From Gemmatimonadetes bacterium T265 (GTDB taxonomy: Bacteria; Gemmatimonadota; Gemmatimonadetes; Gemmatimonadales; Gemmatimonadaceae): DNA of 64,000 nucleotides. The stretch's first letter is position 1; each line of letters begins with the position of its first letter. Of the stretch, positions 41 through 63,965 are shown in pieces. The notes under the pieces are model-generated. The model ran no database searches. It worked only from the letters and a program-made list of their open reading frames with translations, and was not told the DNA's origin. The position numbers were made by a program, and so were the translations under genes. Where the stretch lies: contig BPUI01000001.1 in the NCBI GenBank assembly GCA_019973575.1, positions 930,001-994,000 of the forward strand. Direction: 5' to 3'.

Positions 41-1759
41 GTGCCGGGGCAGCTCGTGCCGGAGATGGGGGGCGCGGTCGCGTTCGCGGGGACGCGGCGC
101 GTGCCGCCCGCGGTGAACGAGCCGGTGCGCGGCTACGCGCCGGGCTCGCCGGAGCGGCGCGAGCTGCGCGCGCGGCTCGCGGAGATGGTGGGGGAGCACG
201 CGGAGATCCCGCTCGTGGTCGGGGGCGAGCGCGTGTACACGGGCGACGTGGCGCGGGTGACGAACCCGTGCGCGCACCGCGAGGTGTTAGGCGAGTGGCA
301 CCGGGCGTCGGCGGAGGACGTCGCGCGCGCGGTGGGCGCGGCGCGGGACGCGCACCGCGAGTGGGCGAACTGGGCGTGGGAGGACCGGGCGGCGGTGTTC
401 CTGCGCGCGGCCGAGCTGCTCGCGACGACGTGGCGGCAGACGCTGAACGCGGCGACGATGTTGGGCCAGGCGAAGACGGCGCACCAGGCGGAGATCGACT
501 CGGCGTGTGAATTAATCGACTTTCTCCGCTTCAACGTGCAGTTCGCCCAGGAGCTGTACGCGGAGCAGCCGGCGAGCGACCGGACGATGTGGAACCAGCT
601 GGACTACCGCCCGCTCGAGGGGTTCGTGTACGCGGTCACGCCGTTCAACTTCACGGCGATCGCGGGCAACCTGCCGACGAGCGCGGCGCTGATGGGGAAC
701 ACGGTCGTCTGGAAGCCGGCGGGGAGCGCGATGCTCTCGGCGTGGCACCTGATGCGGCTCTTGGAGGAGGCGGGGCTGCCGCCGGGCGTGATCAATTTCG
801 TGCCTGGTGATCCCAAACTCGTGAGCGACGCGCTGCTGGCGCACCCGGACCTCGCGGGCGTGCACTTCACGGGGAGCACGGGCGTGTTCAACAGCATGTG
901 GGAGACGATCGGGCGCAACATGGGGCGCTACCGCTCGTACCCGCGCATCGTCGGCGAGACGGGGGGCAAGGACTTCATCCTCGCGCACCCCTCGGCCGAC
1001 CCGCAGGCGCTCGCGGTCGGGATCGTGCGCGGGGCGTTCGAGTACCAGGGGCAGAAGTGTTCGGCGGCGAGCCGGGTCTACGTACCGCGGTCGATGTGGC
1101 CGGACGTGCGCGAGCGGGTCGTGGCGATGATGCGGGAGATCCGCGTCGGCGACGTGCGCGACTTCCGCAACTTCATGGGCGCGGTGATCGACGAGCGCTC
1201 GTTCGCGAAGATTTCGGGGTACCTGGCCGACGCGCGGGCGAACGCGCGGGTCGTGCAGGGGGGCGGCGCGGACCGGTCGGCGGGGTGGTTCGTCGAGCCG
1301 ACGCTGGTCGAGGCGCCGGAGCCGGGGTACCGGCTGATGTGCGAGGAGATCTTCGGGCCGGTGGTGACGGCGTACGCGTGGGACGACGCCGCGCCTAACG
1401 GCTGGGCGGAGGTGCTGCGCACGGTCGACCGCACGTCGCCGTACGCGCTGACGGGGGCGGTGTTCGCGCGGGACCGGAAGGCGGTGCGGCAGGCCGCGGT
1501 CGCGCTGCGGAACGCGGCGGGCAACTTCTACGTCAACGACAAGCCGACGGGGGCGGTCGTGGGGCAGCAGCCGTTCGGCGGGGCGCGGGGGTCGGGGACG
1601 AACGACAAGGCGGGGTCGAAGCTCAACCTGCTGCGCTGGACCAGCCCGCGGACGGTGAAGGAGACGTTCGCGCCGCCGACGGACTTCCGGTACGCGTTCC
1701 TGCACCCGGAGTTGGACGGGGACCCGGCGGAGGGGCCGGCGCAGGAGGGGGCGATCTAG
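41..1759 (+). CDS. pruA: L-glutamate gamma-semialdehyde (1-pyrroline-5-carboxylate) dehydrogenase
   Basis: This enzyme oxidises glutamate semialdehyde, formed from proline, to glutamate with NAD+. The 572-aa protein is a full-length aldehyde dehydrogenase of the stand-alone P5CDH type (ALDH4A1-like) and not the bifunctional PutA form. The general-base Glu is about residue 306 (GETGGKDF) and the nucleophile Cys about residue 340 (GQKCSAAS), a spacing of 34 that is typical of the family; NFTAIAGNLP and PFGGARGSGTNDK are also P5CDH-like. The start is uncertain. GTG at 41 has a GGAG six bases upstream, but the frame is open to the window edge and an internal ATG lies at 65. It overlaps the PhzF gene by one base (TAGTG), which suggests co-transcription. 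Confidence 0.9.
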   Translation: MPGQLVPEMGGAVAFAGTRRVPPAVNEPVRGYAPGSPERRELRARLAEMVGEHAEIPLVVGGERVYTGDVARVTNPCAHREVLGEWHRASAEDVARAVGAARDAHREWANWAWEDRAAVFLRAAELLATTWRQTLNAATMLGQAKTAHQAEIDSACELIDFLRFNVQFAQELYAEQPASDRTMWNQLDYRPLEGFVYAVTPFNFTAIAGNLPTSAALMGNTVVWKPAGSAMLSAWHLMRLLEEAGLPPGVINFVPGDPKLVSDALLAHPDLAGVHFTGSTGVFNSMWETIGRNMGRYRSYPRIVGETGGKDFILAHPSADPQALAVGIVRGAFEYQGQKCSAASRVYVPRSMWPDVRERVVAMMREIRVGDVRDFRNFMGAVIDERSFAKISGYLADARANARVVQGGGADRSAGWFVEPTLVEAPEPGYRLMCEEIFGPVVTAYAWDDAAPNGWAEVLRTVDRTSPYALTGAVFARDRKAVRQAAVALRNAAGNFYVNDKPTGAVVGQQPFGGARGSGTNDKAGSKLNLLRWTSPRTVKETFAPPTDFRYAFLHPELDGDPAEGPAQEGAI

Positions 1760-2754
1760 TGGGGGCCGCGGCGCGGACGTTCCGCTACGTGACCGCCGAC
1801 GTCTTCACCGACCGTCAGTTCGGCGGCAACCCGCTCGCGGTGGTGCTCGACGCGCGCGGGATGACGGACGAGGAGATGCTCGCGGTGACCCGCGAGTTCA
1901 ACTACTCGGAGACGACGTTCGTGCTGCCGCCGGAGCGCGGCGGCGCGGCGCGGGTGCGGATCTTCACGCCGGCGGCGGAGATCCCGTTCGCCGGACACCC
2001 GACGGTGGGCACCGCGCACGTGCTGTTCGCGACGGGCGCGCTGCGCACGGACGCGGGCGAGACGACCGTGGTGCTGGAAGAGGGCGTGGGCGACGTGCGG
2101 GTGCGGGTAGTATTAGGCGAAGGCGGCTCGGCGGAGCTCGGGGGGGTGGAGCCGGCGTTCGTCGAGCTGAGCGTGGCGCGGCTGCCCGAGTCGCACCCCG
2201 CCCCCGCGCCGGCGCTCCTCGCGGCCGCGTTGGGCCTCGACCCCGACGAGCTGCTCGGGGCGGAGTACGAGCCGAGCATCGGGTCGTGCGGGCTGCCGTT
2301 CACGCTCGTCGCGGTGCGGGACCGGGCCGCGGTGGCGCGGGCGCACGTGCGGGCGGAGGCGTGGGCGGCGGCGTTCCCCGTGGCGCGCTCGGGGCTCGAC
2401 CCCCACGACGGGGCGCGCGCGTTCGAGAGCGAGGGGGTGATGGTGTTCGCGCTCGACGGCACCGACGGGGCGGACGTGCACGCGCGGGTGTTCGTGCCGG
2501 AGCTCGCGGTGCCCGAGGACCCGGCGACGGGGTCGGCCTGCGCGGCGTTAGGCGGGTACCTCGCGGCGCGGACGCCCCGGACGGGGGAGTTGGCGTGGCG
2601 GGTGGCGCAGGGGGTCGAGATGGGGCGGCCGAGTCGGCTGGAGTTGCGGGTGGAGAAGGACGGGGGCGGCGTGACGGGGGTGCGGGTGGGAGGAAGTTCG
2701 GTGGTGGTGTGCGAGGGGGTGATCCGGCTGCGGGGGGACGGGCGGGGTGCGTGA
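1759..2754 (+). CDS. PhzF-family isomerase/epimerase
   Basis: PhzF/YddE-like protein of 331 aa with the diaminopimelate-epimerase-like double fold. Typical landmarks are the N-terminal DVFTDRQFGGNPLAVV block, the catalytic glutamate about residue 51 (FNYSETTFV), TPAAEIPFAGHPTVG, and the C-terminal DPATGSACAALGGYL. Family members isomerise small acids; the substrate here cannot be read from sequence. There is no phenazine cluster around it, so a housekeeping or amino-acid-related role is more likely, in keeping with its coupling to the proline catabolic gene. The GTG start overlaps the preceding stop. A GTTAGGC heptamer encodes Leu-Gly near residue 264 and an ATTAGGC variant lies near residue 119. 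Confidence 0.88.
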   Translation: MGAAARTFRYVTADVFTDRQFGGNPLAVVLDARGMTDEEMLAVTREFNYSETTFVLPPERGGAARVRIFTPAAEIPFAGHPTVGTAHVLFATGALRTDAGETTVVLEEGVGDVRVRVVLGEGGSAELGGVEPAFVELSVARLPESHPAPAPALLAAALGLDPDELLGAEYEPSIGSCGLPFTLVAVRDRAAVARAHVRAEAWAAAFPVARSGLDPHDGARAFESEGVMVFALDGTDGADVHARVFVPELAVPEDPATGSACAALGGYLAARTPRTGELAWRVAQGVEMGRPSRLELRVEKDGGGVTGVRVGGSSVVVCEGVIRLRGDGRGA

Positions 2755-2977: not shown

Positions 2978-3388
2978 GCAGTTCGTTCGGGGCGGGTAGA
3001 GCGACAGGTAGGACGTGGGTTGGGGGGGCGCGCCAGGTGGGCGCTCGCGGACAGGTCGTTGGAGTGGGGCAGGCAGGGCGGGGCGACACCCGCGGCGCCC
3101 GTGACGCGGGGCGGCAGCGGCGGCCGGGTCGGGCACCGCCGCGGGGAGCTGCCCGGCTCCTGTCGTCCAGTCAGCCGCCGGTCCCGTCCCGTGGCTCCGC
3201 CTCGGTCTTCGGCCCCGCGGTGTTCGGAACCGCCCCACGACCGATCCGCAAGCGCTTATCTGGCACGCCCGCCCACCCACGCCCCACTCGTCGTCCCACC
3301 CGCCCCGCACCCACCCGCGACGCCGTTGCCTAACATCGTCCGGGCGCGCGGCCCTCGTCCGGGTAGCCCGGCGCTCTAGCTTTCCCTC
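2978..3388. other. Gene-free stretch upstream of panD
   Basis: About 410 bp without a convincing gene; the open frames here lack family features. A possible stem pairs 3117-3123 (GCGGCGG) with 3136-3142 (CCGCCGC), extended outward by GGCAGC (3113-3118) with GCTGCC (3148-3153). This could end the upstream transcript. A GCCTAAC heptamer lies at 3328-3334, just before panD. I see no clear sigma-70 promoter. Confidence 0.4.
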
Positions 3389-3784: not shown

Positions 3785-3848
3785 GTCGTAGGTCACCGAC
3801 CGGGCAAGCGGGCTCGGCACTACGCGGCCCGACCGGGGTAGTGGAGGT

Positions 3849-5324: not shown

Positions 5325-5696
5325 TCAATCCACCGCCGGCCGCGGCCGGTGACGCCACGCCCGCGGCGCCCAGCCGAACCGCTCGAGCGAGAGCCGCCCG
5401 CCTGCGGCGAACACGACCCCCTCGCGCTCGAGCCGTAGCCGCTGGAGCACGCTCCCGCCCGGGCCCTCGCTCCGGGCGCTGATGCGCCCCTGCGCGTTCA
5501 CCACCCGGTGCCACGGCACGCGGTCGTCGGGCGCGGCGGCGTGCATCGCGTAGCCGACGAGGCGGGCCTGGCCGGGGAGCCCGGCGAGCCAGGCGACCTG
5601 GCCGTAGGTGGCGACGCGGCCGCGCGGGATCCGGCGGACGACGCGGTAGATCGCGGCGTGCGACGACGGCGCCGCGGGCGGCCGTCCGTTAGGCAT
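5325..5696 (-). CDS. Alkyltransferase-like (ATL) DNA-damage protein
   Basis: 123-aa protein homologous to the DNA-binding domain of O6-alkylguanine-DNA alkyltransferase. The alkyl-acceptor Cys of the PCHRV motif is Trp here (PWHRVV, W62), which defines ATL proteins. These bind O6-alkylguanine, flip it out and recruit nucleotide excision repair instead of transferring the alkyl group. The HTH region RGRVATYGQVAWLAGLPGQARLVGYAM is intact, including the arginine-finger region. It overlaps the upstream peptidase E gene by 8 bases and its second and third residues (Pro-Asn) are written by a CCTAAC motif. Confidence 0.88.
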   Translation of the reverse strand: MPNGRPPAAPSSHAAIYRVVRRIPRGRVATYGQVAWLAGLPGQARLVGYAMHAAAPDDRVPWHRVVNAQGRISARSEGPGGSVLQRLRLEREGVVFAAGGRLSLERFGWAPRAWRHRPRPAVD

Positions 5697-6435
5697 CGTC
5701 CTCGGCCGTCGCGAGGTCGCCGCCCGGGGGCACCGCCTCCGCGTCGCGCCCGGCGCGGAAGACGAGCGCCGCGTGCGCCCCGCCGACCGCCGCGCGCGCG
5801 CCGGCGACGGCGAGCCAGCTGCCTTCCGGGAGGCCGACGACCGCCGAGCGCGGGTTGGCGGCGAGGAACTCCGCGAGGCGCTCGCGCCGCGTCTCGCCCT
5901 GGAAGCCCGGGGGGTGGGCGTCGGTGAAGTGGGCGTTGACCTGCGCGCCGAACAGGCCTAACGCGTCGAGCCCGCCGGGCGGCTCGACGATCGGCATGTC
6001 GTTGGTCGTGCGGATCGTCGGGCAGGCGACGACCGCGCCCGCGCTCCACCCCACGTACGGCGCGCCCGCCGCCGCCCGCGCGCGCAGCGCCGCCACGAGC
6101 CCCCGCCGCCGCAACTCGGCGAGCAGGTGGAAGGTGTTCCCGCCCCCCACCGCGACCGCGCCCGCCCCGGCGAGGACCGCCGCCGGGTCGGCGTCGGCGT
6201 GCACGCCGCGCAGCGTGATGCCTAACGGGGCGAACGCCCCGGCGGCGCGCGCCGCGTACGCGTCCCAGCCGACGGTGACGCCCGCGTAGGGCACGAAGGC
6301 CACCTCGCGCACGCCGGCGAGGTGTGCGGCGAGCGCGTCGCGCGCGTGGACGAGGTAGCGCCCCGCGGGGTCGCGCGAGTTGGAGAGGAGGAGCAGGCGG
6401 CGGGCGGCGCGGAGCGCGGGGTCGACGGGCGGCAC
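5689..6435 (-). CDS. pepE: Peptidase E (aspartyl dipeptidase, family S51)
   Basis: 248-aa cytoplasmic serine peptidase that hydrolyses Asp-X dipeptides. It has the class I glutamine-amidotransferase-like fold with the nucleophile elbow GWSAGA (Ser about 131), the GGGNTFHLL strand-turn about 97-105, and NDMPIVEPPG plus a later AHFTDAH segment supplying the His. Length fits the family. The GTG start at 6435 gives the usual short N-terminus. It precedes and overlaps the ATL gene, so the two are translated together; a functional link is not obvious. Confidence 0.87.
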   Translation of the reverse strand: MPPVDPALRAARRLLLLSNSRDPAGRYLVHARDALAAHLAGVREVAFVPYAGVTVGWDAYAARAAGAFAPLGITLRGVHADADPAAVLAGAGAVAVGGGNTFHLLAELRRRGLVAALRARAAAGAPYVGWSAGAVVACPTIRTTNDMPIVEPPGGLDALGLFGAQVNAHFTDAHPPGFQGETRRERLAEFLAANPRSAVVGLPEGSWLAVAGARAAVGGAHAALVFRAGRDAEAVPPGGDLATAEDDA

Positions 6436-6557: not shown

Positions 6558-6923
6558 ATGATCCGCGGCGTCAAGTTCGTCACCATCCCCACGCGCGACC
6601 AGGACCGCGCGCTCGCCTTCTGGACCGAGCGCATGGGCTTCACCGTCGCGACCGACCAGCCGTTCGGCGGCGGCCAGCGCTGGATCGAGCTGCGCGTCCC
6701 GCGCGCCGACACGCAGGTCGTGCTCTTTACGTCGCCGGGGCACGAGGACCGGGTCGGCACGTGGTCGCCGTTCACCTTCTGGACCGACGACCTCGACGCG
6801 ACCTACGCGGAGCTGACCGCCGCGGGCGTCGAGACGCTCGGGCCGCCCGAGAAGGCGCCGTGGGGCTCGTCGCTCAAGTTCCGCGACCCGGACGGCAACA
6901 CCTTCCTCGTCTCGTCGCGTTAG
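6558..6923 (+). CDS. VOC-family (glyoxalase/bleomycin-resistance fold) protein
   Basis: 121-aa single-domain vicinal-oxygen-chelate protein, start ATG 6558. It shows the two beta-alpha-beta-beta-beta modules: VKFVTIPTRDQDRALAFWTERMGF then SPFTFWTDDLDATYAELTAAGVE, closing with KFRDPDGNTFLVSS. Family members bind a metal and act on small molecules or sequester drugs; the substrate is unknown. The stop codon TAG is embedded in GTTAGGC, and the 13-bp unit GTCGCGTTAGGCC is tandemly duplicated at 6914-6926 and 6927-6939. Confidence 0.9.
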   Translation: MIRGVKFVTIPTRDQDRALAFWTERMGFTVATDQPFGGGQRWIELRVPRADTQVVLFTSPGHEDRVGTWSPFTFWTDDLDATYAELTAAGVETLGPPEKAPWGSSLKFRDPDGNTFLVSSR

Positions 6924-6961
6924 GCCGTCGCGTTAGGCCCGGGGCGCCCCGCCGCGGGCGG

Positions 6962-7594: not shown

Positions 7595-8199
7595 GGGCCG
7601 AGTATACGCTCGGCGCGCGGCCGCCCGCCACTCGGCGCGGCGCGCCCCGGCCGCCACTCGTCCGCGGTGATCGCCCAGCGCTCGTGGTCGCGCCAGCGCC
7701 CGCCGAGTTTGAGGTAGCGCGGCGAGTCCCCCTCGTGGCGGAAGCCGAGCGCGGCGAGCAGCGCGCGCGAGCGGTCGTTGCCGGGCTGCACGGCCGCCTC
7801 GACGCGGTGCAGCCCGGTGCGGCGGAAGCCGTGGGTGAGCAGCCGCGCGACGCCCTCGCGGACGTAGCCGCGCCCCGCAGAGGGCGCGAACGCGTAGTAG
7901 CCGAGCGAGGCGCAGCGGAGTCCGCCCCAGACGACGTTGTTGAGGTTGGCCGCGCCGAGGACCGCGCCGTCGGCACGGCGGCAGACGAGCCGGCAGACGT
8001 GCCCCGGGTAGACGTCGTGCTCCTGCGCGGCGCGGGCGACGTAGGCGCGGAACGCGGCCGGCGTGTCGGGCGCGACGACCCACGGGCGGTGCAGCGCCGC
8101 GCTCGCCTGGACGAGGGCGAGGAACTCCGCCGCGTCGTTAGGCGCCGGGGGGCGGAGCGTGACGCGCTCAGCGACGCGCGCCGCGCGCGTGGCGGTCAC
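7591..8199 (-). CDS. RimJ/RimL-like GNAT acetyltransferase
   Basis: 202-aa GNAT protein that would acetylate an amino group using acetyl-CoA. The RimJ/RimL type is indicated by RVTLRPPAPNDAAEFLALV at the N-terminus, SLGYYAFAPSAGRGYVREG covering the acetyl-CoA pyrophosphate loop, and HRVEAAVQPGNDRSRALLAALGF. It starts at a GTG one base after the stop of the GH43 lipoprotein and ends in an ATGA overlap with the Uma2 gene, so the three form one transcript. Substrate is unknown (ribosomal protein N-termini in characterised relatives). Confidence 0.88.
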   Translation of the reverse strand: MTATRAARVAERVTLRPPAPNDAAEFLALVQASAALHRPWVVAPDTPAAFRAYVARAAQEHDVYPGHVCRLVCRRADGAVLGAANLNNVVWGGLRCASLGYYAFAPSAGRGYVREGVARLLTHGFRRTGLHRVEAAVQPGNDRSRALLAALGFRHEGDSPRYLKLGGRWRDHERWAITADEWRPGRAAPSGGRPRAERILGP

Positions 8200-9407: not shown

Positions 9408-11279
9408 CTACCGCGCGGCCACCGCGCGCGCGACCGCCGGCGCGGCCGGGGCCGCGGGCGTCGTGAAGTCCTCGCCCGGGTTCACGAAGCGGTTCTCCTC
9501 CCACGCGTACTGCCGGTCGTGGAGCGCGCGGTAGCGGCCGCCGAGCGCCATGAGTTCGGCGTGCGTGCCGCGCTCGACGACCGCGCCCTGCTCCAACACC
9601 AGGATCTGGTCGGCCGAGCGGATGGTGGAGAGGCGGTGCGCGATCACGAACGTCGTGCGCCCGCCGCGGAGCCGCGCGAGCGCCTCCTGGATCAGCGCCT
9701 CGCTCTCCGAGTCGAGCGACGAGGTCGCCTCGTCGAGGATGAGGATCCGCGGGTCGGCGAGCAGCGCGCGGGCGATCGCGATGCGCTGCCGCTGGCCGCC
9801 CGACAGCTTCACCCCGCGCTCGCCGACGACCGTGTCGTACCCCTCGGGGAAGCCGCGCACGAAGTCGTCGCAGTTGGCGAGCCGGGCCACCGCTTCGACC
9901 TCCGCCCGCGTGGCCGACGGCCGCGAGAAGCTGATGTTCTCGGCGACCGTGCCGTCGAAGAGGAAGTTGTCCTGCAGCACGACGCCTAACTTGGCGCGGT
10001 AGTCGGCGAGCTTGACCGTGTCGAGGTCGCGGCCGTCGACGAGCACGCGCCCCCGGGTCGGGCGGTTGAAGGCCATGACGAGCGAGACGAGCGTGCTCTT
10101 GCCGCTCCCGCTCGAGCCCACGAGCGCGGTCGTCGAGCCCGCGGGCGCGCTGAAGCTGACGCCCTTGAGCACGTCCACCCCCTCGCGGTAGGCGAACCAG
10201 ACGTCCTCGAAGGCGACGTCGCCGCGGAGCGCCGGGAGCGCCGCGCGGCGCGCGTCCTCCTCGTTCTCGGTCGGCGTGGCGAGGATCTCCCGGATCCGGT
10301 CCAGCCCCGCGATCGCCTCCGAGATCTGCGTCCCGATCGAGGCCACCGAGATGACCGGCACGGCGAGCAGGCCGACGAAGAACACGTAGGAGAGGAGCGC
10401 GCCGAGCGTCATCCGCCCCGCGATCACCGCCGGGCCGCCGACGGCGAGGATCAGCAGCCCGACGAGGCCGACGACGACCGTGCCCGCGCTCGTCGTCGCG
10501 CTCACGCCGGTGATGCTGCTCGCGATGTTGCGGAACAGCCGGTTGACGCCCCGCCCGAACACCGCCTGCTCGCGCCGCTCGGTGCCGTACGCCTTCACGA
10601 CGCGGATCCCGCCCAACGTCTCGTTCAGCCGCCCGGTGACCTCGGCGGTGATCTTGCCGCGCTCGCGGAAGATCGGGCGCAGCCGGCCGAACGCGGTCGC
10701 CATCCCCCACGCGAAGAGCGCGAGGATGACGACGATGATGAGCGTCATGACCCAGTTGAGCCAGAGCAGCACGCCCAACGCGAGCACTGCGGTGAACACG
10801 CCGCCGACGAGCTGCACGAGCCCCGTGCCGACGAGGTTCCGGATCCCCTCCGCGTCGTTCATCACGCGCGAGATGAGCACGCCGGTCTGGTGCTCGTCGA
10901 AGTAGCGCACCGGCAGGCGCGTCACGCGGTTGAGCACGCGCCGCCGCATGTCGCTGATCGCGCGCTGCGCGGCCACCGAGATGACCTGCGAGAGCGCGAA
11001 GCCCGTCACGGCCTGCACGACGGTCGCGAGCGTCGCGGCGAGGGCGAGCGGCCAGAGCAGGTTGTGGCGCCCCTTCGTGATGACGTCGTCGATCAGGTAC
11101 TTGCTCGACAGCGGCAGCACGAAGCCCGCGAGGCGGCTGATCACCATCAGCACCGCGCCGACGCCGAGGGCGCGGCGGTGCTTCCACATGAGGGCGCGCG
11201 CCTCGCGCCAGGCGGCCTTCGTGTCGACGGGCTTCTTCTTGTCGCCCGGCTTCGTCGCCGGAAGGGCTGGGGCGGTCAT
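9408..11279 (-). CDS. MsbA-like ABC exporter (fused permease and ATPase)
   Basis: 623-aa half-transporter that would act as a homodimer. The N-terminal about 330 residues carry six transmembrane helices with the coupling segment FDEHQTGVLISRVMNDAEGIRNL. The ATPase domain has Walker A GSSGSGKST (about 390-398), Q-loop VLQDNFLFDGT, signature LSGGQRQ, Walker B ILILDEATS and the switch His in FVIAHRLST. This arrangement is typical of lipid A/phospholipid flippases and multidrug exporters; the substrate is not clear. The C-terminus is a disordered Ala/Pro tail. Transcribed alone. Confidence 0.93.
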   Translation of the reverse strand: MTAPALPATKPGDKKKPVDTKAAWREARALMWKHRRALGVGAVLMVISRLAGFVLPLSSKYLIDDVITKGRHNLLWPLALAATLATVVQAVTGFALSQVISVAAQRAISDMRRRVLNRVTRLPVRYFDEHQTGVLISRVMNDAEGIRNLVGTGLVQLVGGVFTAVLALGVLLWLNWVMTLIIVVILALFAWGMATAFGRLRPIFRERGKITAEVTGRLNETLGGIRVVKAYGTERREQAVFGRGVNRLFRNIASSITGVSATTSAGTVVVGLVGLLILAVGGPAVIAGRMTLGALLSYVFFVGLLAVPVISVASIGTQISEAIAGLDRIREILATPTENEEDARRAALPALRGDVAFEDVWFAYREGVDVLKGVSFSAPAGSTTALVGSSGSGKSTLVSLVMAFNRPTRGRVLVDGRDLDTVKLADYRAKLGVVLQDNFLFDGTVAENISFSRPSATRAEVEAVARLANCDDFVRGFPEGYDTVVGERGVKLSGGQRQRIAIARALLADPRILILDEATSSLDSESEALIQEALARLRGGRTTFVIAHRLSTIRSADQILVLEQGAVVERGTHAELMALGGRYRALHDRQYAWEENRFVNPGEDFTTPAAPAAPAVARAVAAR

Positions 11280-13880: not shown

Positions 13881-14759
13881 ATGCACGCGCTGATGTCGCT
13901 CCCGCTTTTCTCGTCGGTCCGCGCTCGCTGTCGGCCGCGCTTCGTTCCCGGTGCGCTGTTCGTCGCCGCGTGGACGGCCGCCGCGTGCGGCGGCCGCGGC
14001 CCGCGCGCGGGCGAGGCGCCGGCGCCCGTCGCGGCGGCCCCGCGCAACCTCCTGCTCGACCCCGACACGACGCTCGAGCGCCGCGCCGCGCCCGACACGT
14101 TCGACGTCCGCTTCTCGACCACGCGCGGGCCGTTCGTCGTGCGCGTGGTGCGCGCGTGGGCGCCGCGCGGCGCGGACCGGCTGTTCTACCTCACGACGAA
14201 CGGCTTCTACGACGGGACGCGCTTCTTCCGCGTGCTGCCGCGCTTCGTCGCCCAGTTCGGCGCCCCGGGCGACCCGCGCGTGAACCGCGTCTGGGAGTCG
14301 CGCACGATCGCCGACGACCCCGTGCACCGCGCCAACGTGCGCGGCTTCGTCAGCTTCGCCACCGCGGGGCCCAACACGCGCACGACGCAGCTCTTCGTCA
14401 ACCTCGCCAACAACCAGCGCCTCGACCGGCTCGGCTTCGCCCCGTTAGGCCGCGTGGTGCTCGGGATGGACAACGTCGACTCGCTCTACGCCGGCTACGG
14501 CGAGGGCGCGCCGGCCGGGCGCGGCCCCGACCAGGACCGGATCGCGGCCGAGGGCAACCGGTATCTCGCGGCGGCGTTCCCGAAGCTCGACGCGATCGAC
14601 AGCGCGCGCGTGGTGCGCGCGGTCATGGCCGCGCCGGGCGAGGCGACGGCGGCGAAGCCCGACAGCGCGGCCGTCGACAAGAAGCCGGCGGCCAAGTCCG
14701 CGGCGAAAAAGAAGCCGGCCCGGACGAGCCGCGGCACCGCCCGGACCGGGACGCCGTAG
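13881..14759 (+). CDS. Lipoprotein peptidyl-prolyl cis-trans isomerase (cyclophilin)
   Basis: 292-aa periplasmic folding catalyst. The signal peptide ends in a lipobox (TAAACGG). The cyclophilin domain spans about residues 65-230, with FFRVLPRFVAQFGAPGD supplying the catalytic Arg and Gln, and GFVSFATAGPNTRTTQLFVNL. The last 45 residues form a low-complexity Ala/Lys/Ser tail. The ATG at 13881 was chosen because it gives a clean signal peptide. It converges with the next gene, only 11 bp between stops. Confidence 0.9.
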   Translation: MHALMSLPLFSSVRARCRPRFVPGALFVAAWTAAACGGRGPRAGEAPAPVAAAPRNLLLDPDTTLERRAAPDTFDVRFSTTRGPFVVRVVRAWAPRGADRLFYLTTNGFYDGTRFFRVLPRFVAQFGAPGDPRVNRVWESRTIADDPVHRANVRGFVSFATAGPNTRTTQLFVNLANNQRLDRLGFAPLGRVVLGMDNVDSLYAGYGEGAPAGRGPDQDRIAAEGNRYLAAAFPKLDAIDSARVVRAVMAAPGEATAAKPDSAAVDKKPAAKSAAKKKPARTSRGTARTGTP

Positions 14760-15301: not shown

Positions 15302-16938
<1,637 letters not shown>

Positions 16939-17817: not shown

Positions 17818-19512
<1,695 letters not shown>

Positions 19513-19666: not shown

Positions 19667-21889
<2,223 letters not shown>

Positions 21890-21912: not shown

Positions 21913-21944
21913 GGCCGGCGCGCGACCTGCCTAACGCGCCGGCC
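21913..21944. terminator. Bidirectional hairpin between convergent genes
   Basis: GGCCGGCGCG (21913-21922) pairs perfectly with CGCGCCGGCC (21935-21944) around a 12-nt loop that contains most of a GCCTAAC heptamer. It lies between the prolyl oligopeptidase stop and the SIMPL gene stop. No T-run follows in either direction, so termination is inferred from position and stem strength. Confidence 0.5.
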
Positions 21945-23742: not shown

Positions 23743-23759
23743 GCGTGGGCGTGCGCGGA

Positions 23760-32704: not shown

Positions 32705-32714
32705 GCCGCCGCGC

Positions 32715-35053: not shown

Positions 35054-35077
35054 AACCTGCCTAACCCCAATCCTCTC

Positions 35078-47920: not shown

Positions 47921-48466
47921 TCAGAACGCGCGGACCACGGCCGTCGCGCGCAGGGTGTCCACGCGGCCCGTCCGCGTCACCGCGAGCGCGAACGGGACGG
48001 AGTCGCCGACGGCCAGCGGCCGCCGGAGCCGCTCGAGCATCGCGTGCTTGCCGAGCGGCGCGAACGCGGCCGAATCGCCGGGCGGCACGACGCCGCGTGC
48101 GAGCGGGGCCATGTGCGTCATCGCGCCGGCGCCCTCGCCCATCCGCATCGACTCGTGCAGCGACGTCGCGCCGGCGACGTCGGCGCGCGCGCCGACGAGG
48201 ACGAGGGTGTCGCGGCCGGGGTTGGCGAGGACGAAGTAGAGCGCGCCGTCGGCGCCCGCCGCCGCGGGGCGCGCCCACGCATCGCGGAGCGCGGGCGGGG
48301 CGTCGGCGGTGCCCGCGGCGTCGGGCCGCCCGCGTGCGCAGCCAGCGCCTAACAGCACGACGAGCGCGGCGGCCGGCGCGAGCGCGCGAGCCCCGCATCG
48401 CCGGCGCCCGGCCCGAAGTGTGAGGGGATGATTCGGCAGATGGGAATGATGCCCTGCTCGGCTCAT
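47921..48466 (-). CDS. PCu(A)C copper chaperone lipoprotein
   Basis: 181-aa periplasmic protein that delivers Cu(I) for cytochrome oxidase assembly. A signal peptide with lipobox LLGAGC precedes a DUF461 domain with the copper motif: His and Met in LHESMRMGEGAGAMTHM, then KHAMLERLRRPLAVGDSVPF. The spacing H-x(3)-M...M-x-H-M is as in the family, with the second His/Met pair present. No Sco or CtaG gene adjoins. Divergent from the DMT transporter gene. Confidence 0.87.
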   Translation of the reverse strand: MSRAGHHSHLPNHPLTLRAGRRRCGARALAPAAALVVLLGAGCARGRPDAAGTADAPPALRDAWARPAAAGADGALYFVLANPGRDTLVLVGARADVAGATSLHESMRMGEGAGAMTHMAPLARGVVPPGDSAAFAPLGKHAMLERLRRPLAVGDSVPFALAVTRTGRVDTLRATAVVRAF

Positions 48467-49115: not shown

Positions 49116-50777
49116 TCAGGATTCCGGCAGCACATCGAGTCCCGCGGTCCCCGCACGCTCGGCCGGCCCGCGGTCGCGCACGACGCGCCGCTCGGCGGTC
49201 GGCGCCGGGGCGCCGCCCCGCTTGTCGCCCGTAGGGCGCGCGGCGCGCCGCGCGTCGGCCGGCAGCGCCGCCGTGTAGCGCGCCACGTACTCCGTGACGC
49301 GCACCTTGCGCGCCGTCGCCTCGCTCGACATCGGCCGCACCTTGCCCAGCACCGGCCGCTCCTGCCAGGCGTGATCGTACCGGCCTAACACCCAGGTGAT
49401 CCCGCTCGTCGAGTTCGGGTTGCGTCCGTCGAGCGCCCAGCGGTTGTTCACGTGCAGCATGAACGCGAGCGCCTCCTCCCCCGAGCGCGTCCACTCGAGG
49501 AACTTCTTCCCCCAGAGGATCCGCAGGTAGTTGTGGATCCGCCCGTCGGTGCGGAGCTGGCCCTGCGTCGCGTTCCACAGCGCGTCGTACGTCGCGCCCG
49601 CCTCCAACTCGTCGCGCGTGAACAGCTCCGCGCGCCGGTCCCCCCGGTGCGCCCCCAGCGTCGCGCGCGCCCACTCGGGCAGCGACCCGTACGTGTCGTG
49701 CGCGGGGAGGAAGAACGCGGTGTTGTACGACAGCTCGCGCCACGTCACGAACTCGTCCAGGAACGCCTCGCCGTTGGGCGACATCCCCCACCACCCCTCG
49801 CGCTTCCCCGTCGGCCGCGGCGCGAGCCGCGCGGGCGTCCACCCCTCGCGCTCCGCGACGCGCGCGAACACGTCGTGCGCGCTCACGAACCCCCAGTGCA
49901 GGTACGGCGAGAGCCCGCTGTTGCTCGGGTCCTCCGCCTCGTTCCGGCGCGCGGCGTACGTGTCGAGCTTGCGCCCCACGAAGTCGGCGAGCACGACCGC
50001 GGCCTTGCGCGGGCCGCCGCCGAAGGCGACCGGCGCGACGCCGTGGTCGATCGGCAACGTGCCTAACGCCAGCCGCCCCGCCTCGCCCCGGTCGAGCAGT
50101 TCGGCCGACGCCGCCGGGTAGCGCCGCCGCACGCCGTCCACGTGCGCGCGCGCCGCGCCCGCGAGCGCCGGCAGCGCGCGCGCGCCGCGCAGCGGCTCTT
50201 CCGCCGGGAACCAGCCGAGCTGGGCGGGCAGCTCGCGCTGCAGGTGGCGGCGGAAGTGCGGCGCCGCGCTCCACGCCTTCTCCCCGAGCCGCAGCGGGAG
50301 CAGCCCGTTGCCGTCGACCGCCTCGAGGCGCACGCCGCGCGCGGCGAGCGTCCGCCCCGCGGCCGCGAGCATGCGCGGGAGGAAGAACTCGGGAAATTCG
50401 TCGGTAACGACCAGGCATGCGCGCTCGGCGAGCGCCTCGAGTAGCCCGCGGTCCGCGCCGTCCTCGGGCTCGACGTACGCGTAGTGCGCGACCCCGACAT
50501 CCGCGTACGCCGCCGCGTTGTCGGCCATGCCGTCGAGCGCGAACCGGTGCAGCCGGTCGCTCGCCCACGGGTAGCCCGCGCGCAGCGCCTCGAACACGAC
50601 GAGCGGTCGCCCCCACGCCCGCGCCCGCGCCTCGGCGTATTCGAGCGCGAAGTTGTACCGCGTGCGCCGCGCCATCACGCACCAGTACAGCACGTAGTCG
50701 CGCGCCGGCTCGGCGGGCACGTCGTTGAGCGCCGTGAGGCGCTCGGCGGGCACGGCAGAAATGGGGACGGCGGGCAT
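49116..50777 (-). CDS. phr: Class II deoxyribodipyrimidine photolyase
   Basis: 553-aa flavoprotein that repairs cyclobutane pyrimidine dimers with light. The class II markers are VLYWCVMARRTRYNFALEYA, SGLSPYLHWGFVSAHDVF, RELSYNTAFF and NRWALDGRNPNSTSGITWVLGRYDHAW, with the latter covering FAD and DNA contacts. It is longer than typical class II enzymes because of an about 60-residue Arg/Ala/Gly-rich C-terminal tail of unknown role. Start ATG 50777. Transcribed alone, near the MsrA and other stress genes. Confidence 0.94.
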   Translation of the reverse strand: MPAVPISAVPAERLTALNDVPAEPARDYVLYWCVMARRTRYNFALEYAEARARAWGRPLVVFEALRAGYPWASDRLHRFALDGMADNAAAYADVGVAHYAYVEPEDGADRGLLEALAERACLVVTDEFPEFFLPRMLAAAGRTLAARGVRLEAVDGNGLLPLRLGEKAWSAAPHFRRHLQRELPAQLGWFPAEEPLRGARALPALAGAARAHVDGVRRRYPAASAELLDRGEAGRLALGTLPIDHGVAPVAFGGGPRKAAVVLADFVGRKLDTYAARRNEAEDPSNSGLSPYLHWGFVSAHDVFARVAEREGWTPARLAPRPTGKREGWWGMSPNGEAFLDEFVTWRELSYNTAFFLPAHDTYGSLPEWARATLGAHRGDRRAELFTRDELEAGATYDALWNATQGQLRTDGRIHNYLRILWGKKFLEWTRSGEEALAFMLHVNNRWALDGRNPNSTSGITWVLGRYDHAWQERPVLGKVRPMSSEATARKVRVTEYVARYTAALPADARRAARPTGDKRGGAPAPTAERRVVRDRGPAERAGTAGLDVLPES

Positions 50778-52493: not shown

Positions 52494-54671
52494 ATGTCTT
52501 CAGACGCCGACGCCGCGCGGGGGTTGCTCGCGACTGCCGTCGCCGCGCTCTCGCGCGGTGACGTCGACGGAGCGCGGGCGCTCTGCCGCGCCGTGTCGGG
52601 CGCGCTCCGTACGACGCGCGCCCCCGCCGCGCTGGCGGCGGAACTCGCGCGGTTGGAGGCGCGCGCCGCGTTCACGGGCGGCGACGCGGACGCCGCCCTC
52701 GACGCGCTCGCGGCGGCCCTCGCGATCTCCGACTGCAACGGCGACGCGTTAGGCCGCTCGCAGGCCCTGAACAGCTCGGCGATCGTCCACCTCCAGCGGG
52801 GCGAACTCGACGAGGCCGAGGCCCTGTACGAGGCGGCGCGCGCGGCGGCCGTGCGGGCGCGTGACCGCCGCGTGGTCGTCGCGACGACGCTCCACCTCGG
52901 GATCATCTCGAACGTGCGCGGCGACCTTCGCCGGGCGCGCTCGCACTACCGGCGGGCGCTCGTGGGCGCCCGGCGGCTCGGGGCCATCCCGAGCGAGTTG
53001 CACGCGCTCAACAACCTCGGGATGCTCCACGCCGACCTCGGTCAGTGGGACGAGGCCGAGGAGGCGTACGCCGAAGCGCTCGCCATCAACCAGCGGCTCG
53101 GCGATCAGGAGGCGCTGGCGCTCCTGCACGCGAACGTCGCCGAGGTCTGGCTGGGGCGCGGCGACCTGGCGCGTGCCGGAGCCGCGTGCGACGCCGGCGT
53201 CGCGGCGTCGGCCCGCACCGAGCACGGCGCACACCGCGCGGACCTGCACAAGATGGAAGGCGTCGTCGCGCGCGAGGCGGGCCTGCTCGCCAAGGCCGAG
53301 GCGCACTTTACCGACGCCGAGCACATCGCGCGCGAACGGCACGACCTGCTACTCCTCGCCGAGGTCGCGCGCGAGCAGGGCGACCTTTACCGTCGCCAGG
53401 GCCGCAACCGCGACACGCTCGCGGCCCTCAACCGCTCGCACCAGCTCTTCCGGCAGCTCCGCGCCCGGCGCGATCTCGCGGACGTCAACCGTCGCATGGG
53501 GCGCCTCGAGGGCGAGTTCCTCGAGGTGGCGCGGCGCTGGGGCGAGTCGATCGAGGCGAAGGACTGCTACACGCAGGGCCACTGTCAGCGCGTCGCGGAC
53601 CTGTCGTGCCGGATCGCCGAGCACGCGGGGGCGGCGTACGGGTTCGACGCGCAGACGATGTTCTGGTACCGCATCGGCGCGCTACTGCACGACGTGGGCA
53701 AGCTCGACGTGCCGGCCGAGGTGCTCAACAAGCCCGGCAAGCTGAGCGACGCGGAGTGGGCGATGATGCGCGGGCACGCGGAGGCCGGGGTCGCGCTGTT
53801 AGGCGACATCGAATTCCCGTGGGACGTCCGCCCGATCGTGCTCTCGCACCACGAGCGGTGGGACGGGAAGGGCTACCCGCACGGGCTCGCGGGCGAGACG
53901 ATCCCGCTCTCGGCGCGGGTGCTCGCGGTAGCGGACGTCTACGACGCGCTCACCTCGGTGCGGAGCTACAAGCGCGCGATGCCGCACGAGGACGCGCTAC
54001 GCATCCTGCGGCAGGACGCCGGGACCGCGTTCGACCCACAGGTGGTGGCATGGTTCGAGGCCGTGGCGCCGGCGTGGCGCGCGACGCTCGCCGCCGCAGG
54101 TGCCGGCGACGCGGCGCACGGCGCCGACGCGCGCCCGGCGCCGGACGTGCGCGACCAGCGCCGCATCGCGGGGCTCGACGAGGTCACGGGGCTCCCCGGC
54201 CGCCAGGCGTTCTTCGACGAATGCGCGCGCGTGCTCGCCGCGCGCGCCGACGACGGGCGTCCGACGACGCTCCTCCTCGTCACCCTCACGCCGCCGGCCG
54301 TCGGTAGCGGGGACGGCGCGGGCACATTGAGCGAGACGGCGTTGGCCGCCGTCGCCGAGGCGATCAGCCGAAATACGCGGGGCGGCGACTTCGTGGGGCG
54401 GTACGCGGAACGGGAGTTCGTGGTGCTCCTCCCCGACACGAACGCCGAGGAAGGGGCGGCGACGCTCGCGCGGCTGCGCGACGTGGCCGGGACCGCGCTC
54501 CGCCGGGCGACGTTCGACGTGCCGCCCGCGACGCTCGAACTCGCGGCGAGCGTCGCGCCGGAGCACGGCACAACGTCGGGTGCGCTCCTCGCCACGGCCG
54601 ACGCGACCCGGCGCCGCGGTCGCGGCGGCGCGCTCCCGCCGGGGCTCCGCGTCCTGCAGACCGCGGCCTGA
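52494..54671 (+). CDS. TPR, HD-GYP and degenerate GGDEF protein
   Basis: 725-aa predicted cytoplasmic protein. Residues about 70-350 are TPR helices (ALNNLGMLHADLGQWDEAEEAYAEAL). An HD-GYP phosphodiesterase domain follows, with HD at about 399-400 (LLHDVGKLDVP) and the GYP loop at about 460-462 (WDGKGYPHGL), both complete, so c-di-GMP hydrolysis is expected. The C-terminal domain has a GGDEF-like fold, but the signature reads AEREF (about residue 637), which should abolish cyclase activity. It might bind GTP as a sensor. ATG 52494 is preferred over GTG 52467. Confidence 0.9.
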   Translation: MSSDADAARGLLATAVAALSRGDVDGARALCRAVSGALRTTRAPAALAAELARLEARAAFTGGDADAALDALAAALAISDCNGDALGRSQALNSSAIVHLQRGELDEAEALYEAARAAAVRARDRRVVVATTLHLGIISNVRGDLRRARSHYRRALVGARRLGAIPSELHALNNLGMLHADLGQWDEAEEAYAEALAINQRLGDQEALALLHANVAEVWLGRGDLARAGAACDAGVAASARTEHGAHRADLHKMEGVVAREAGLLAKAEAHFTDAEHIARERHDLLLLAEVAREQGDLYRRQGRNRDTLAALNRSHQLFRQLRARRDLADVNRRMGRLEGEFLEVARRWGESIEAKDCYTQGHCQRVADLSCRIAEHAGAAYGFDAQTMFWYRIGALLHDVGKLDVPAEVLNKPGKLSDAEWAMMRGHAEAGVALLGDIEFPWDVRPIVLSHHERWDGKGYPHGLAGETIPLSARVLAVADVYDALTSVRSYKRAMPHEDALRILRQDAGTAFDPQVVAWFEAVAPAWRATLAAAGAGDAAHGADARPAPDVRDQRRIAGLDEVTGLPGRQAFFDECARVLAARADDGRPTTLLLVTLTPPAVGSGDGAGTLSETALAAVAEAISRNTRGGDFVGRYAEREFVVLLPDTNAEEGAATLARLRDVAGTALRRATFDVPPATLELAASVAPEHGTTSGALLATADATRRRGRGGALPPGLRVLQTAA

Positions 54672-55415: not shown

Positions 55416-55440
55416 GCCGTGGCGCCTAACGGCGTCCTTT
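55416..55440. terminator. Small hairpin with T-run holding a GCCTAAC
   Basis: GCCGT (55416-55420) can pair with ACGGC (55429-55433) around the loop GGCGCCTA, followed by GTCCTTTT (55434-55441). GCCTAAC (55424-55430) is partly in the loop. It lies between the msrA stop and the end of the convergent metallopeptidase gene. The stem is short, but the T-run favours termination of msrA. Confidence 0.45.
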
Positions 55441-61449: not shown

Positions 61450-62547
61450 GTGGCCGTGCGACGCCCTCCGCCCGTCTCAGGGGCCGCTGGCCTGACCGAT
61501 CCCGCGGTCCGGCCCGCGCTCGTCCTGCTCACCGCCTGGCTGCTGGTCACGGCGGTCCCCCTCGCCGAGAGTGGCGCCGGGCCGGCGGGCTACGGCGCGC
61601 TCGTGTGGCACCTCGTACTCGTCGGGGCGTCGGTCGCGATGCTGGCCCTCACGGCGGGCGCGCGCGCCGGCGCGACGCCGCGCCGCTCGCGCGCCGCGGC
61701 GCCGGCACTGGAGTGGAGCGTCGCGTGGCTGCCGCTCGTCGCGGTGCCGGCCTTGTACGCGGAGTTGCCGATCGTCGCGGCGGGGCTGGCGGGCGCGGGG
61801 TCCGGCGTCGCCGCGATGCACGACGCCGTCGCGATCCGCTGGGAGCTGGCGCTCTTCGGCCCACTGCTCGGCGCGAGTCCCGCGGTCGCGCTCGCGCGCC
61901 ACGCGTCGTGGACGCCGCTCAGCGAGTTGCTCCACCTCGCCTACCTCGCGTACTACGTGATCATCTACGTGCCGCCCGCGCTCCTCTGGTGGGAAGCGCG
62001 CCGGCGGCGCGGGGGCGTGGTCAGCGGGGCGGCCGACCCGCGGGCGGCGTTCTACGCGAGCGCGTTCACGGTGCTGCTCGCGTTCGTGCTCTGCTACGCC
62101 GTGTTCGTCGTGTTCCCCGTGCAGGGCCCGTGGTACACCTGGCACACGGGCGGGCCCGGCGGCCTGCCGCTCGCGGGGCCGGTGCGCGCGTTCGTGCAAG
62201 GGCTGCTGGTCGCCGGCTCGTCGCGCGGGACGGCGTTCCCGTCGTCGCACGTGGCGGTGAGCGTCGCGCAAACGGTGGTGCTCGCGCGCGTGGCGCCGCG
62301 GCTCGCGCGGGCCGCGGGGCCGGCGACGGCGCTGCTCGCGTTAGGCGCGGTGTACGGCGGCTACCACTACGGGGTCGACGCGCTCGCGGGCGCGGCGCTC
62401 GGCGCGGCGGTCGGGTGGGCGGGGCCGCGGCTGCTGGCGTACGTCGCGGGGGGCCAGGGGCGGGAACGACAGGGGCGCGAGCGACGCGCGACGGAGGAGT
62501 TTCGCCCCGCGGCGGGACGGGCGGCGCTGGAGCGGAGTGCGCAGTAG
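61450..62547 (+). CDS. PAP2/Aur1-like membrane phosphotransferase
   Basis: 365-aa integral membrane protein with about eight helices. The PAP2 catalytic motifs are SRGTAFPSSHVAVS (motif 2, with His) and GGYHYGVDALAGAALG (motif 3: His-x3-Asp). VVFPVQGPWYTWHT precedes them as in the Aur1 inositol-phosphorylceramide synthase group (PAP2_3). It could dephosphorylate a lipid phosphate or transfer a phospho-head group to ceramide. GTG 61450 is the start. Divergent from the palmitoyltransferase-like gene over a 178-bp, locally A+T-rich gap (TTAATTCCTTTCATTTT near 61368). Confidence 0.83.
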   Translation: MAVRRPPPVSGAAGLTDPAVRPALVLLTAWLLVTAVPLAESGAGPAGYGALVWHLVLVGASVAMLALTAGARAGATPRRSRAAAPALEWSVAWLPLVAVPALYAELPIVAAGLAGAGSGVAAMHDAVAIRWELALFGPLLGASPAVALARHASWTPLSELLHLAYLAYYVIIYVPPALLWWEARRRRGGVVSGAADPRAAFYASAFTVLLAFVLCYAVFVVFPVQGPWYTWHTGGPGGLPLAGPVRAFVQGLLVAGSSRGTAFPSSHVAVSVAQTVVLARVAPRLARAAGPATALLALGAVYGGYHYGVDALAGAALGAAVGWAGPRLLAYVAGGQGRERQGRERRATEEFRPAAGRAALERSAQ

Positions 62548-62937: not shown

Positions 62938-62945
62938 GCATCCCC

Positions 62946-63965
62946 TCACACCAAACCTTGTGCCTTGTACCAGGCGTACGTCCGCCGCGTCCCTTCTGCC
63001 AGCCCGACTGTGGGGACCCACCCCAGTTCCAGCCGCGCCCGCGCCGCGGAGCAGCACCAGAAGCGTGGCCGCCCGAGGCGCAGCTTCTCGCGCGTGACGA
63101 GGACCTCGCGTCGGGTGAGGGCGGCCCAGGCGTCGCCGGCGAGGCCCGCCGCGGCGAGGACGACGGCGGGGGCGTCGAGGCCGAGGCGCACGCGGCGGCC
63201 GGCGGCCGCGGCGGCCGCGTCGTAGACCGCGGGCCACGGGACCCGCTCGTCCCCCGCGACGAAGAACGTCCCGCCGACCGCCTGGGGCGCGGTGGCCGCG
63301 AGGACGAGGGCGCGGGCGAGGTCGCCGACGTAGACCATCGACAGCCACGCGTCGCGCGTGCCGGGGTAGAGGGCCATCCCGCGCGCCGCGTGGCGGAAGA
63401 CGGGGAGGAAGTCGCGGTCGCGCGGGCCGTAGACCGCCGACGGGCGGACGATCGTCCACGGGAGGCCGCCCGGGTGCGCCATCAGCAGGCGCTCCGCCTC
63501 GCGCTTGCTGTGGCCGTAGGCGCCGACCGGCTCGGCGGGGTCCCGCTCGGTGCGCGGGCGGTCGGGGGAGCGCGCCGCGCCCGCGGCGGCCTGCGACGAG
63601 ACGAGGACGAAGCGCGCGGGCGGGGCGCCGCCGCCCGCCCCGCGGGCGGCGAGCGCGTCGAGCAGCGCGGCCGTCGGCGCGACGTTGCCCGCGCGGAACT
63701 CGGCGAGCGTGCGCCGCTTCGTCACCCCCGCGAGGTGGAACACCGCGTCCACCCCGTCGAGCGCGGGCGAGCGGCCTAACGCGTCGGCGTCGGCGAGCGG
63801 CGCGGCGACCGTCTCGACGCGGCGGGCGAGCGCGTCGGGGAGGGCCGGGGGCGCGGGCGCGCTCTCGGGGCGGACGAGGCGCCGCACGGTCCACCCCGCG
63901 CCCGCGAGGGCCTCGACGAGGTGCGAGCCGACGAACCCCGAGCTGCCGGTGACGAGGGCGAGCAC
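62946..63965 (-). CDS. NAD-dependent epimerase/dehydratase, possible ceramide-type reductase
   Basis: 339-aa extended short-chain dehydrogenase. It has the NAD motif TGSSGFVGSH at residues 6-15, VFHLAGVTKRRTLAEF, VSSQAAAG for the catalytic Ser, and YGHSKREAE for Tyr-x3-Lys, followed by IVRPSAVYGPRD. The group includes sugar epimerases and bacterial ceramide reductases (CerR). The neighbouring serine palmitoyltransferase-like gene makes the latter plausible but unproven. GTG 63965 is the start, 35 bp from the window edge. Confidence 0.82.
   Translation of the reverse strand: MLALVTGSSGFVGSHLVEALAGAGWTVRRLVRPESAPAPPALPDALARRVETVAAPLADADALGRSPALDGVDAVFHLAGVTKRRTLAEFRAGNVAPTAALLDALAARGAGGGAPPARFVLVSSQAAAGAARSPDRPRTERDPAEPVGAYGHSKREAERLLMAHPGGLPWTIVRPSAVYGPRDRDFLPVFRHAARGMALYPGTRDAWLSMVYVGDLARALVLAATAPQAVGGTFFVAGDERVPWPAVYDAAAAAAGRRVRLGLDAPAVVLAAAGLAGDAWAALTRREVLVTREKLRLGRPRFWCCSAARARLELGWVPTVGLAEGTRRTYAWYKAQGLV

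What the first reader, a model, noticed from the sequence alone, without database searches (positions are those of the whole stretch)
286..63780. GTTAGGC/GCCTAAC is strongly over-represented: a possible DNA-uptake-like or chromosome-marking motif
I count 46 exact copies in 64 kb, about one per 1.4 kb. With about 74% G+C and independent bases, roughly five would be expected on both strands, so the excess is near nine-fold although the motif holds three A/T bases. Copies occur in genes of unrelated function, on both strands, in stop codons and in intergenic hairpins. The density is like that of uptake sequences in Haemophilus and Neisseria, which also favour terminators. In genes it is mostly read as Leu-Gly (TTA GGC, 29 of 37), also Pro-Asn (6), Val-Arg and Leu-Thr. 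So it is not one peptide motif; DNA-level selection is the simplest explanation. Alternatives are a nucleoid-protein or repair site (Chi/KOPS-like), a methylation target, or mutational capture of TTA.
Basis: partly seen in the sequence, partly recalled or inferred. Interest (0 to 1): 0.82.

Follow-up and report, generated by a model that had tools for sequence, protein, structure and literature searches.

The report
Genome-wide heptamer tag in soil bacteria
A seven-letter DNA word, GTTAGGC, has been written thousands of times through the whole genome of this soil bacterium and some of its relatives, evenly spaced and on both strands, in a pattern that most resembles the tags some bacteria use to recognise their own kind's DNA for uptake, although that role has not been shown here.

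Summary
The window holds 46 copies against 2.7 expected; the genome holds 3,304 against 253 for the reversed control. Synonymous-codon shuffling leaves 16-21 of 430 genic copies. About 15% of Leu-Gly and of Pro-Asn codon pairs carry the word, in different frames and orientations, so it is kept at the DNA level. It is all-or-none across Gemmatimonadales: rich in Gemmatirosa and about ten other genera of the family, and virtually absent from sister genera (1 copy in 400 kb of G015). Copies turn over like ordinary synonymous sites, yet they exclude each other within about 200-300 bp (5 pairs at 50-200 bp, 33 expected). That rules out a purely local, site-by-site mutational bias and points to density-dependent maintenance. 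I found no clear replication polarity, no hairpins, no adenine methylation in the published Gemmatirosa methylome, and no detectable RecB/AddAB-type nuclease in this genome, so Chi, KOPS and m6A readings fare badly. The profile fits a DNA-uptake-type signal best (about 0.45), but no receptor was identified, no dialects exist, and a phage-like element carries the word at full density. CGTTAGGC is also exactly the integron attC core box of this phylum. That link is unexplained and may be coincidence.

The parts
286..292 (+). GTTAGGC copy, Val-Leu-Gly in gene 41-1759+
1393..1399 (-). copy, Ala-Pro-Asn in gene 41-1759+
2547..2553 (+). copy, Ala-Leu-Gly in gene 1759-2754+
3328..3334 (-). copy, intergenic
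5688..5694 (+). copy, Met-Pro-Asn at gene start region
5956..5962 (-). copy, Ala-Leu-Gly
6220..6226 (-). copy, Pro-Leu-Gly
6919..6925 (+). copy containing a TAG stop codon
6932..6938 (+). copy, intergenic, direct repeat 13 bp from the previous one
8137..8143 (+). copy, Ala-Pro-Asn
9984..9990 (-). copy, Lys-Leu-Gly
14444..14450 (+). copy, Pro-Leu-Gly
15928..15934 (-). copy, Thr-Leu-Gly in ABC1-kinase gene 15298-16938-
16450..16456 (-). copy, Leu-Leu-Gly in ABC1-kinase gene
16693..16699 (-). copy, Ala-Leu-Gly in ABC1-kinase gene
18001..18007 (-). copy, Pro-Leu-Gly in release-factor-3-like gene 17818-19512-
18304..18310 (-). copy, Leu-Leu-Gly in release-factor-3-like gene
20635..20641 (+). copy, Pro-Leu-Gly in prolyl-oligopeptidase gene
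21929..21935 (-). copy, intergenic
23738..23744 (+). copy overlapping a TAG stop codon
24877..24883 (-). copy, Val-Leu-Gly
25909..25915 (-). copy, Val-Arg frame
26240..26246 (-). copy, Ala-Leu-Gly
27506..27512 (-). copy, Ala-Pro-Asn
27761..27767 (-). copy, Ala-Pro-Asn
32437..32443 (+). copy, Pro-Leu-Gly
32700..32706 (+). copy overlapping a TAG stop codon
33321..33327 (-). copy overlapping a TAA stop codon
33859..33865 (-). copy, Pro-Leu-Gly
35059..35065 (-). copy, intergenic
35315..35321 (-). copy, Thr-Leu-Gly
37072..37078 (-). copy, Leu-Leu-Gly
38872..38878 (-). copy, Leu-Leu-Gly
38980..38986 (-). copy, Leu-Leu-Gly
41713..41719 (-). copy, Ala-Leu-Gly in MacB/FtsX-type permease gene
44688..44694 (-). 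copy, Arg-Leu-Thr frame
45366..45372 (-). copy, Ala-Pro-Asn
46956..46962 (-). copy, Glu-Leu-Gly
48347..48353 (-). copy, Leu-Leu-Gly
49383..49389 (-). copy, Val-Leu-Gly
50061..50067 (-). copy, Ala-Leu-Gly
52748..52754 (+). copy, Ala-Leu-Gly in TPR-HD-GGDEF gene
53798..53804 (+). copy, Leu-Leu-Gly in TPR-HD-GGDEF gene
55424..55430 (-). copy, intergenic
62340..62346 (+). copy, Ala-Leu-Gly
63774..63780 (-). copy, Ala-Leu-Gly

Best explanation
(C)GTTAGGC is a genome-wide double-stranded DNA recognition signal whose density, not the position of single copies, is under selection or molecular drive. The likeliest reader is the natural-transformation machinery: a type IV pilus or competence receptor that prefers DNA carrying the word, so that copies accumulate wherever coding and promoter constraints allow, as with Neisseria DUS and Haemophilus USS. 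SHOWN here: real enrichment, DNA-level and frame-independent; even spacing with exclusion over about 200-300 bp; no clear replication polarity; clade-wise presence and total absence; ComEC and a ComEA-type domain in all 30 genomes examined.
For: Density of 1 per 0.74-1.7 kb in strongly rich genomes, as in DUS/USS. Leu-Gly 14% and Pro-Asn 15% use across frames and orientations. Codon shuffles do not reproduce it. Motif pairs at 50-200 bp are 5 observed vs 33 expected; intergenic/stop/other-frame copies have none within 100 bp of coding copies (10.8 expected); control codons show no exclusion. DUS/USS are also described as evenly spaced and unpolarised (PMC1939737). Excess in convergent gaps and at gene ends, scarcity in divergent promoter gaps. 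Use rises from 2.5% to 22% with host-like GC3; DUS are likewise enriched in core DNA (PMC2397512). The near-miss GTTGGGC is enriched. ComEC and HHH_3 in all 30 genomes. Individual positions are not specially conserved.
Against: No receptor found; competence genes do not separate rich from poor genomes. The word is identical across three families of the order, whereas DUS has eight dialects in one family (PMC3630211). Gemmatirosa megaplasmids and a 21-kb high-copy phage-like element carry it at full density (L031), unlike typical foreign DNA in DUS species. The exclusion range of 200-300 bp is shorter than usual uptake fragments, and the exclusion is weaker in Gemmatirosa. No paired, hairpin-forming copies. 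Transformation of these bacteria was not tested.
Confidence: 0.45

Rival explanations
1. An intracellular architectural, repair or segregation signal: an unidentified DNA-binding protein needs about one site per kilobase (HIP1-like, function unknown).
For: Density-dependent spacing, presence on all replicons including megaplasmids and a small high-copy element, identical word across the order as HIP1 is across cyanobacteria, lack of conserved individual positions.
Against: No reader protein known; complete absence in close sister genera (G015 1 copy per 400 kb) means the function is dispensable; no clear strand polarity as expected for KOPS or Chi.
Confidence: 0.3
2. A modification-linked signal as proposed for HIP1: a methyltransferase recognises the word and methylation-directed repair creates or keeps it.
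For: HIP words track methyltransferases in cyanobacteria (PMC4390886). A cytosine methylation of the word is not excluded; standard SMRT calling is weak for 5mC (my knowledge).
Against: The Gemmatirosa methylome shows only RGATCY, ATGCAC and CCAGN7TCA adenine methylation (PMC3974934), so GTTAGGC is not m6A-modified in a genome with over 5,000 copies. PF01555 enzymes are not found in rich G016, G021, G020, G028; PF07669 occurs in rich and poor alike and was not found in rich G227 and G242.
Confidence: 0.08
3. The word is tied to integrons: it is the R'/R'' core of attC sites, and the genome-wide copies are integrase-binding boxes, decoys, or an uptake preference aimed at gene cassettes.
For: attC sites beside IntI in this phylum read GCCTAAC(G)...(C)GTTAGGC, including this genome (L254) and Gemmatimonas aurantiaca (L257); attC core defined as GTTRRRY/RYYYAAC (PMC3053210); IntI is common in the family; the invariance of the word across the order would follow.
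Against: IntI is in rich and poor genomes alike and was not found in the rich, 97%-complete G242. Only GTTAGGC of the 16 GTTRRRY words is strongly enriched. Genome-wide copies are single, with no clear R''-R' pair excess.
Confidence: 0.09
4. A purely local mutational or repair bias (context-dependent mutation, VSP-like conversion, capture of TTA).
For: The word acts in all frames and on most replicons; a close pair of genomes differs at two sites by the same GTTAGGC/GTTGGGC transition.
Against: Independent sites would not exclude each other over 200-300 bp. The stepping-stone GTTGGGC is enriched, not drained (5.9% vs 0.6% in Gemmatirosa). Leu CTC-to-TTA needs two changes. Copies are depleted in atypical genes.
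Confidence: 0.03
5. A Chi-type recombination site or KOPS-like polar motif.
For: A non-palindromic 7-mer, strongly over-represented.
Against: PF12705, the RecB/AddAB nuclease domain, was not found in this genome or in most rich ones, while E. coli and B. subtilis controls were detected. No clear replication-strand preference per opportunity; the second half of the Gemmatirosa chromosome shows only a mild bias (0.085 vs 0.147).
Confidence: 0.03

Closest known systems
DNA uptake sequences of Neisseriaceae (DUS) and Pasteurellaceae (USS)
   Same: Thousands of short non-palindromic copies, about 1 per kb, both strands, no replication polarity, even spacing, noncoding excess, fewer in foreign-looking DNA, sharp consensus.
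   Different: Another phylum; 7-8 bp core only; no dialects across an order; not paired in terminators; carried at full density by a phage-like element and megaplasmids; no receptor or uptake bias shown.
HIP1 (GCGATCGC) of cyanobacteria
   Same: Highly iterated octamer-scale word, invariant across a broad clade, patchy losses, about 1 per kb, function unknown.
   Different: Here non-palindromic; adenine methylation excluded in Gemmatirosa; no methyltransferase family tested tracks it.
attC core (R'/R'' boxes) of integrons
   Same: Identical sequence, GTTAGGC / GCCTAAC, with the same flanking C/G in most of the phylum's own attC sites seen here.
   Different: attC boxes come in hairpin pairs at cassette junctions and vary as GTTRRRY; the genome-wide copies are single, inside ordinary genes, and invariant.
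Chi sites
   Same: Over-represented short asymmetric word.
   Different: RecB/AddAB-type nuclease not detected; no clear strand polarity.

Membership tests
DNA uptake sequence (DUS/USS) | Strong genome-wide over-representation at about 1 per kb on both strands | tested here: met
DNA uptake sequence (DUS/USS) | No chromosomal orientation bias and even spacing | tested here: met
   polarity, one mild bias in half of the Gemmatirosa chromosome; exclusion, weaker in Gemmatirosa
DNA uptake sequence (DUS/USS) | Core competence machinery present | tested here: met
   ComEC, HHH_3/ComEA-type; present also in motif-poor genomes
DNA uptake sequence (DUS/USS) | Depleted in foreign or mobile DNA | tested here: inconclusive
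   Depleted in low-GC3 genes but full density on a phage-like element and megaplasmids
DNA uptake sequence (DUS/USS) | Specific receptor and biased uptake of motif-bearing DNA | not testable with these tools
   Needs transformation and binding experiments
DNA uptake sequence (DUS/USS) | Inverted pairs in terminators (Neisseria) | tested here: not met
   not a defining feature for all uptake sequences
HIP1-type iterated word | Palindrome | tested here: not met
   GTTAGGC is not palindromic
HIP1-type iterated word | Associated methyltransferase | tested here: inconclusive
   m6A excluded in Gemmatirosa (PMC3974934); PF01555 and PF07669 do not track; C5 enzymes not tested
Chi site | RecBCD/AddAB-type nuclease present | tested here: not met
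Chi/KOPS | Polar orientation relative to replication | tested here: not met
   replication origin inferred only, mild bias in half of the Gemmatirosa chromosome
Integron attC site | R''-R' pair forming a 57-141 bp hairpin | tested here: not met
   for genome-wide copies; met only beside IntI
Integron attC site | Core matches GTTRRRY / RYYYAAC | tested here: met
   Sequence itself; PMC3053210

The most novel reading that the evidence does not exclude
The word is the integron attC core turned into a genome-wide recognition signal: a receptor or binding protein in these bacteria reads the integron box itself, for example so that competent cells preferentially import gene cassettes and kin DNA. 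That would explain why the word never drifts into dialects and why mobile elements carry it too.
Probability: 0.07. Interest if true: 0.93.

Novelty: new variant of a known kind. Interest (0 to 1): 0.75.

Why it matters
My searches of the held library found no report of such a word in this phylum; known genome-wide iterated words with a proposed function sit mainly in Neisseriaceae, Pasteurellaceae and cyanobacteria. Gemmatirosa has a complete genome and a published adenine methylome. If it is an uptake signal, it would be the first that I know of in this major soil phylum and would give a handle for its genetic manipulation. The exclusion range of about 200-300 bp offers a quantitative test of how such words are maintained.

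Tried and rejected
Hairpin/terminator role: motif bases are less paired than random intergenic DNA. Peptide or codon-pair cause: shuffles and similar Leu-Gly and Pro-Asn use. Sense-strand RNA role: Pro-Asn (opposite orientation) is used as much as Leu-Gly. Chi: PF12705 not detected. PF01555 and PF07669 methyltransferases. IntI phyletic pattern. Dispersed attC sites: no pair excess. Alternative word in poor genomes: G015 shows only codon-run-like words among its top 7-mers. Prophage test by terminase PF03237: no hits in any genome. Viral contigs related to the 21-kb element: only distant ones, without enrichment. Recent insertion sequences: none repeated in the samples. Literature: no paper found with this word as a genome-wide repeat.
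Full report
OBSERVATION. The window holds 46 exact GTTAGGC/GCCTAAC at the stated coordinates, against 2.7 expected from dinucleotide shuffles. The window is G000:C1:930001-994000 of a 5.63-Mb, roughly 74% G+C genome with 3,304 copies, against 253 for the reversed word.

ORGANISM. The family is Gemmatimonadaceae. G016 matches Gemmatirosa kalamazoonensis: its contig sizes of 5,311,527 and 20,952 bp agree with the 5,312-kb chromosome and 21-kb high-copy element of PMC3974934, and related plasmid records bear that name. G022 is taken as Gemmatimonas aurantiaca from its chromosome length (my knowledge). The window's genome has RpoC about 87% identical to those of G015 and G016.

DNA LEVEL. In 864 kb of this genome the masked order-2 expectation is 17 and the count is 556; in Gemmatirosa (420 kb) it is 288 against 3. 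Synonymous shuffles leave 16-21 of 430 genic copies. In 464 kb of this genome 189 of 218 TTA codons lie in the word. After a G, before GGC, TTA is 27% of leucine codons; before other G-starting codons it is 0.5%. CCT before AAC is 25% (39% in Gemmatirosa) against 0-0.2% before the control codons. Leu-Gly (14%) and Pro-Asn (15%) are used equally although they read the word in opposite orientations. The extended core is CGTTAGGC.

PLACEMENT. Copies are dense in convergent gaps (1.2/kb; 2.1 in Gemmatirosa), intermediate in tandem gaps, and sparse in divergent gaps (0.4; 0.2); 55 of 771 genes end inside the word. Intergenic copies are not in hairpins. No clear replication polarity appears once gene strand is controlled for; the second half of the Gemmatirosa chromosome shows a mild bias. 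A 9-kb stretch with translation genes including tuf and fusA has none. Use rises with GC3 from 2.5% to 22% of available sites in this genome, and weakly in Gemmatirosa.

SPACING. Permuting the word among Leu-Gly/Pro-Asn sites within GC3 classes, pairs at 50-200 bp number 5 against 33 expected, returning to random at 300-400 bp. Intergenic, stop-codon and other-frame copies have none within 100 bp of coding copies (10.8 expected). Pairs in opposite orientation are also scarce. Control codons show no exclusion. A uniform null over all copies agrees. Gemmatirosa shows a weaker form, with an extra class of tandem copies under 50 bp apart. Independent mutation at each site cannot do this. Selection against clustered TTA codons cannot explain it either, because copies without TTA codons and outside genes take part. 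Individual positions are no better conserved between this genome and Gemmatirosa (odds ratio 4.4) than ordinary synonymous choices (2.3-8.4). So density is maintained, not sites.

DISTRIBUTION. Of about 150 family genomes the word is rich in about eleven genera and at background in the rest. Rich lineages are scattered on an RpoC tree, each next to poor ones, such as G015 beside this genome and Gemmatirosa, and G123 beside G021/G125. G015 has 1 copy in 400 kb; at conserved positions it reads mostly GCTCGGC or GCTGGGC, and it uses TTA once in about 11,700 leucines. Some genomes of families f2 and f3 are moderately rich. No dialects were seen.

READERS TESTED. ComEC and HHH_3 occur in all 30 genomes, so competence is possible everywhere but does not discriminate. 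PF01555 and PF07669 methyltransferases do not track the word, and the Gemmatirosa methylome lists only RGATCY, ATGCAC and CCAGN7TCA (PMC3974934). The RecB/AddAB nuclease domain was not found in this genome or in most rich ones.

INTEGRON COINCIDENCE. The phylum is full of integrons. In several poor genomes the word occurs in one-strand arrays at roughly 0.3-4 kb spacing, mostly under 1.5 kb, which I take to be cassette arrays; those stretches could not be read. Next to IntI genes, attC sites read GCCTAAC(G)...(C)GTTAGGC, in this genome too. The 8-mer is thus the phylum's attC box. But IntI does not track richness, genome-wide copies are unpaired, and the other fifteen GTTRRRY words are not strongly enriched. 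I treat the identity as unexplained; a chance match is possible.

VERDICT. A real, genome-wide, density-selected DNA word, new for this phylum as far as my literature searches show. An uptake-type signal is the best single explanation (0.45): it shares density, sharpness, lack of polarity, even spacing, noncoding excess and depletion in atypical genes with DUS/USS (PMC1939737, PMC2397512, PMC3630211). Invariance across an order, full density on plasmids and a phage-like element, and the lack of a known receptor keep an intracellular reader (0.3) in play.

Noticed in passing
G230:C2:164-18652; G245:C5:12471-26115; G035:C43; G297:C24: One-strand, regularly spaced runs of CGTTAGGC in otherwise motif-poor relatives, most likely integron cassette arrays; they inflate word counts there.
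   Followed up: partly
[quoted passage not shown] about 14 motif copies per unit, denser than the chromosome.
   Followed up: partly
G000:C3:115000, C1:366680, C3:192486: At least three integron integrase genes in this genome, one with an in-frame TGA.
   Followed up: no
Gemmatimonadaceae generally: Many genomes examined, including this one, give no PF12705 (RecB/AddAB nuclease) match, so how they resect double-strand breaks is open.
   Followed up: no
G123 within genus g22: A genome with 9 copies assigned to the same genus as genomes with 2,664-5,785; a recent loss of the system or a misassignment.
   Followed up: no
G000:C1:203263-204456 and 248540-249733: Two identical tuf genes with no motif copy, at lower G+C (0.675) than the genome.
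   Followed up: no
A conserved protein of about 1,050-1,200 aa with an Eco57I-type methylase domain in nearly every family member, motif-rich or poor.
   Followed up: no
G016 samples: Excess of motif copies less than 50 bp apart (34 vs 14), often direct repeats 11 or 16 bp apart, against the general rule of exclusion.
   Followed up: partly
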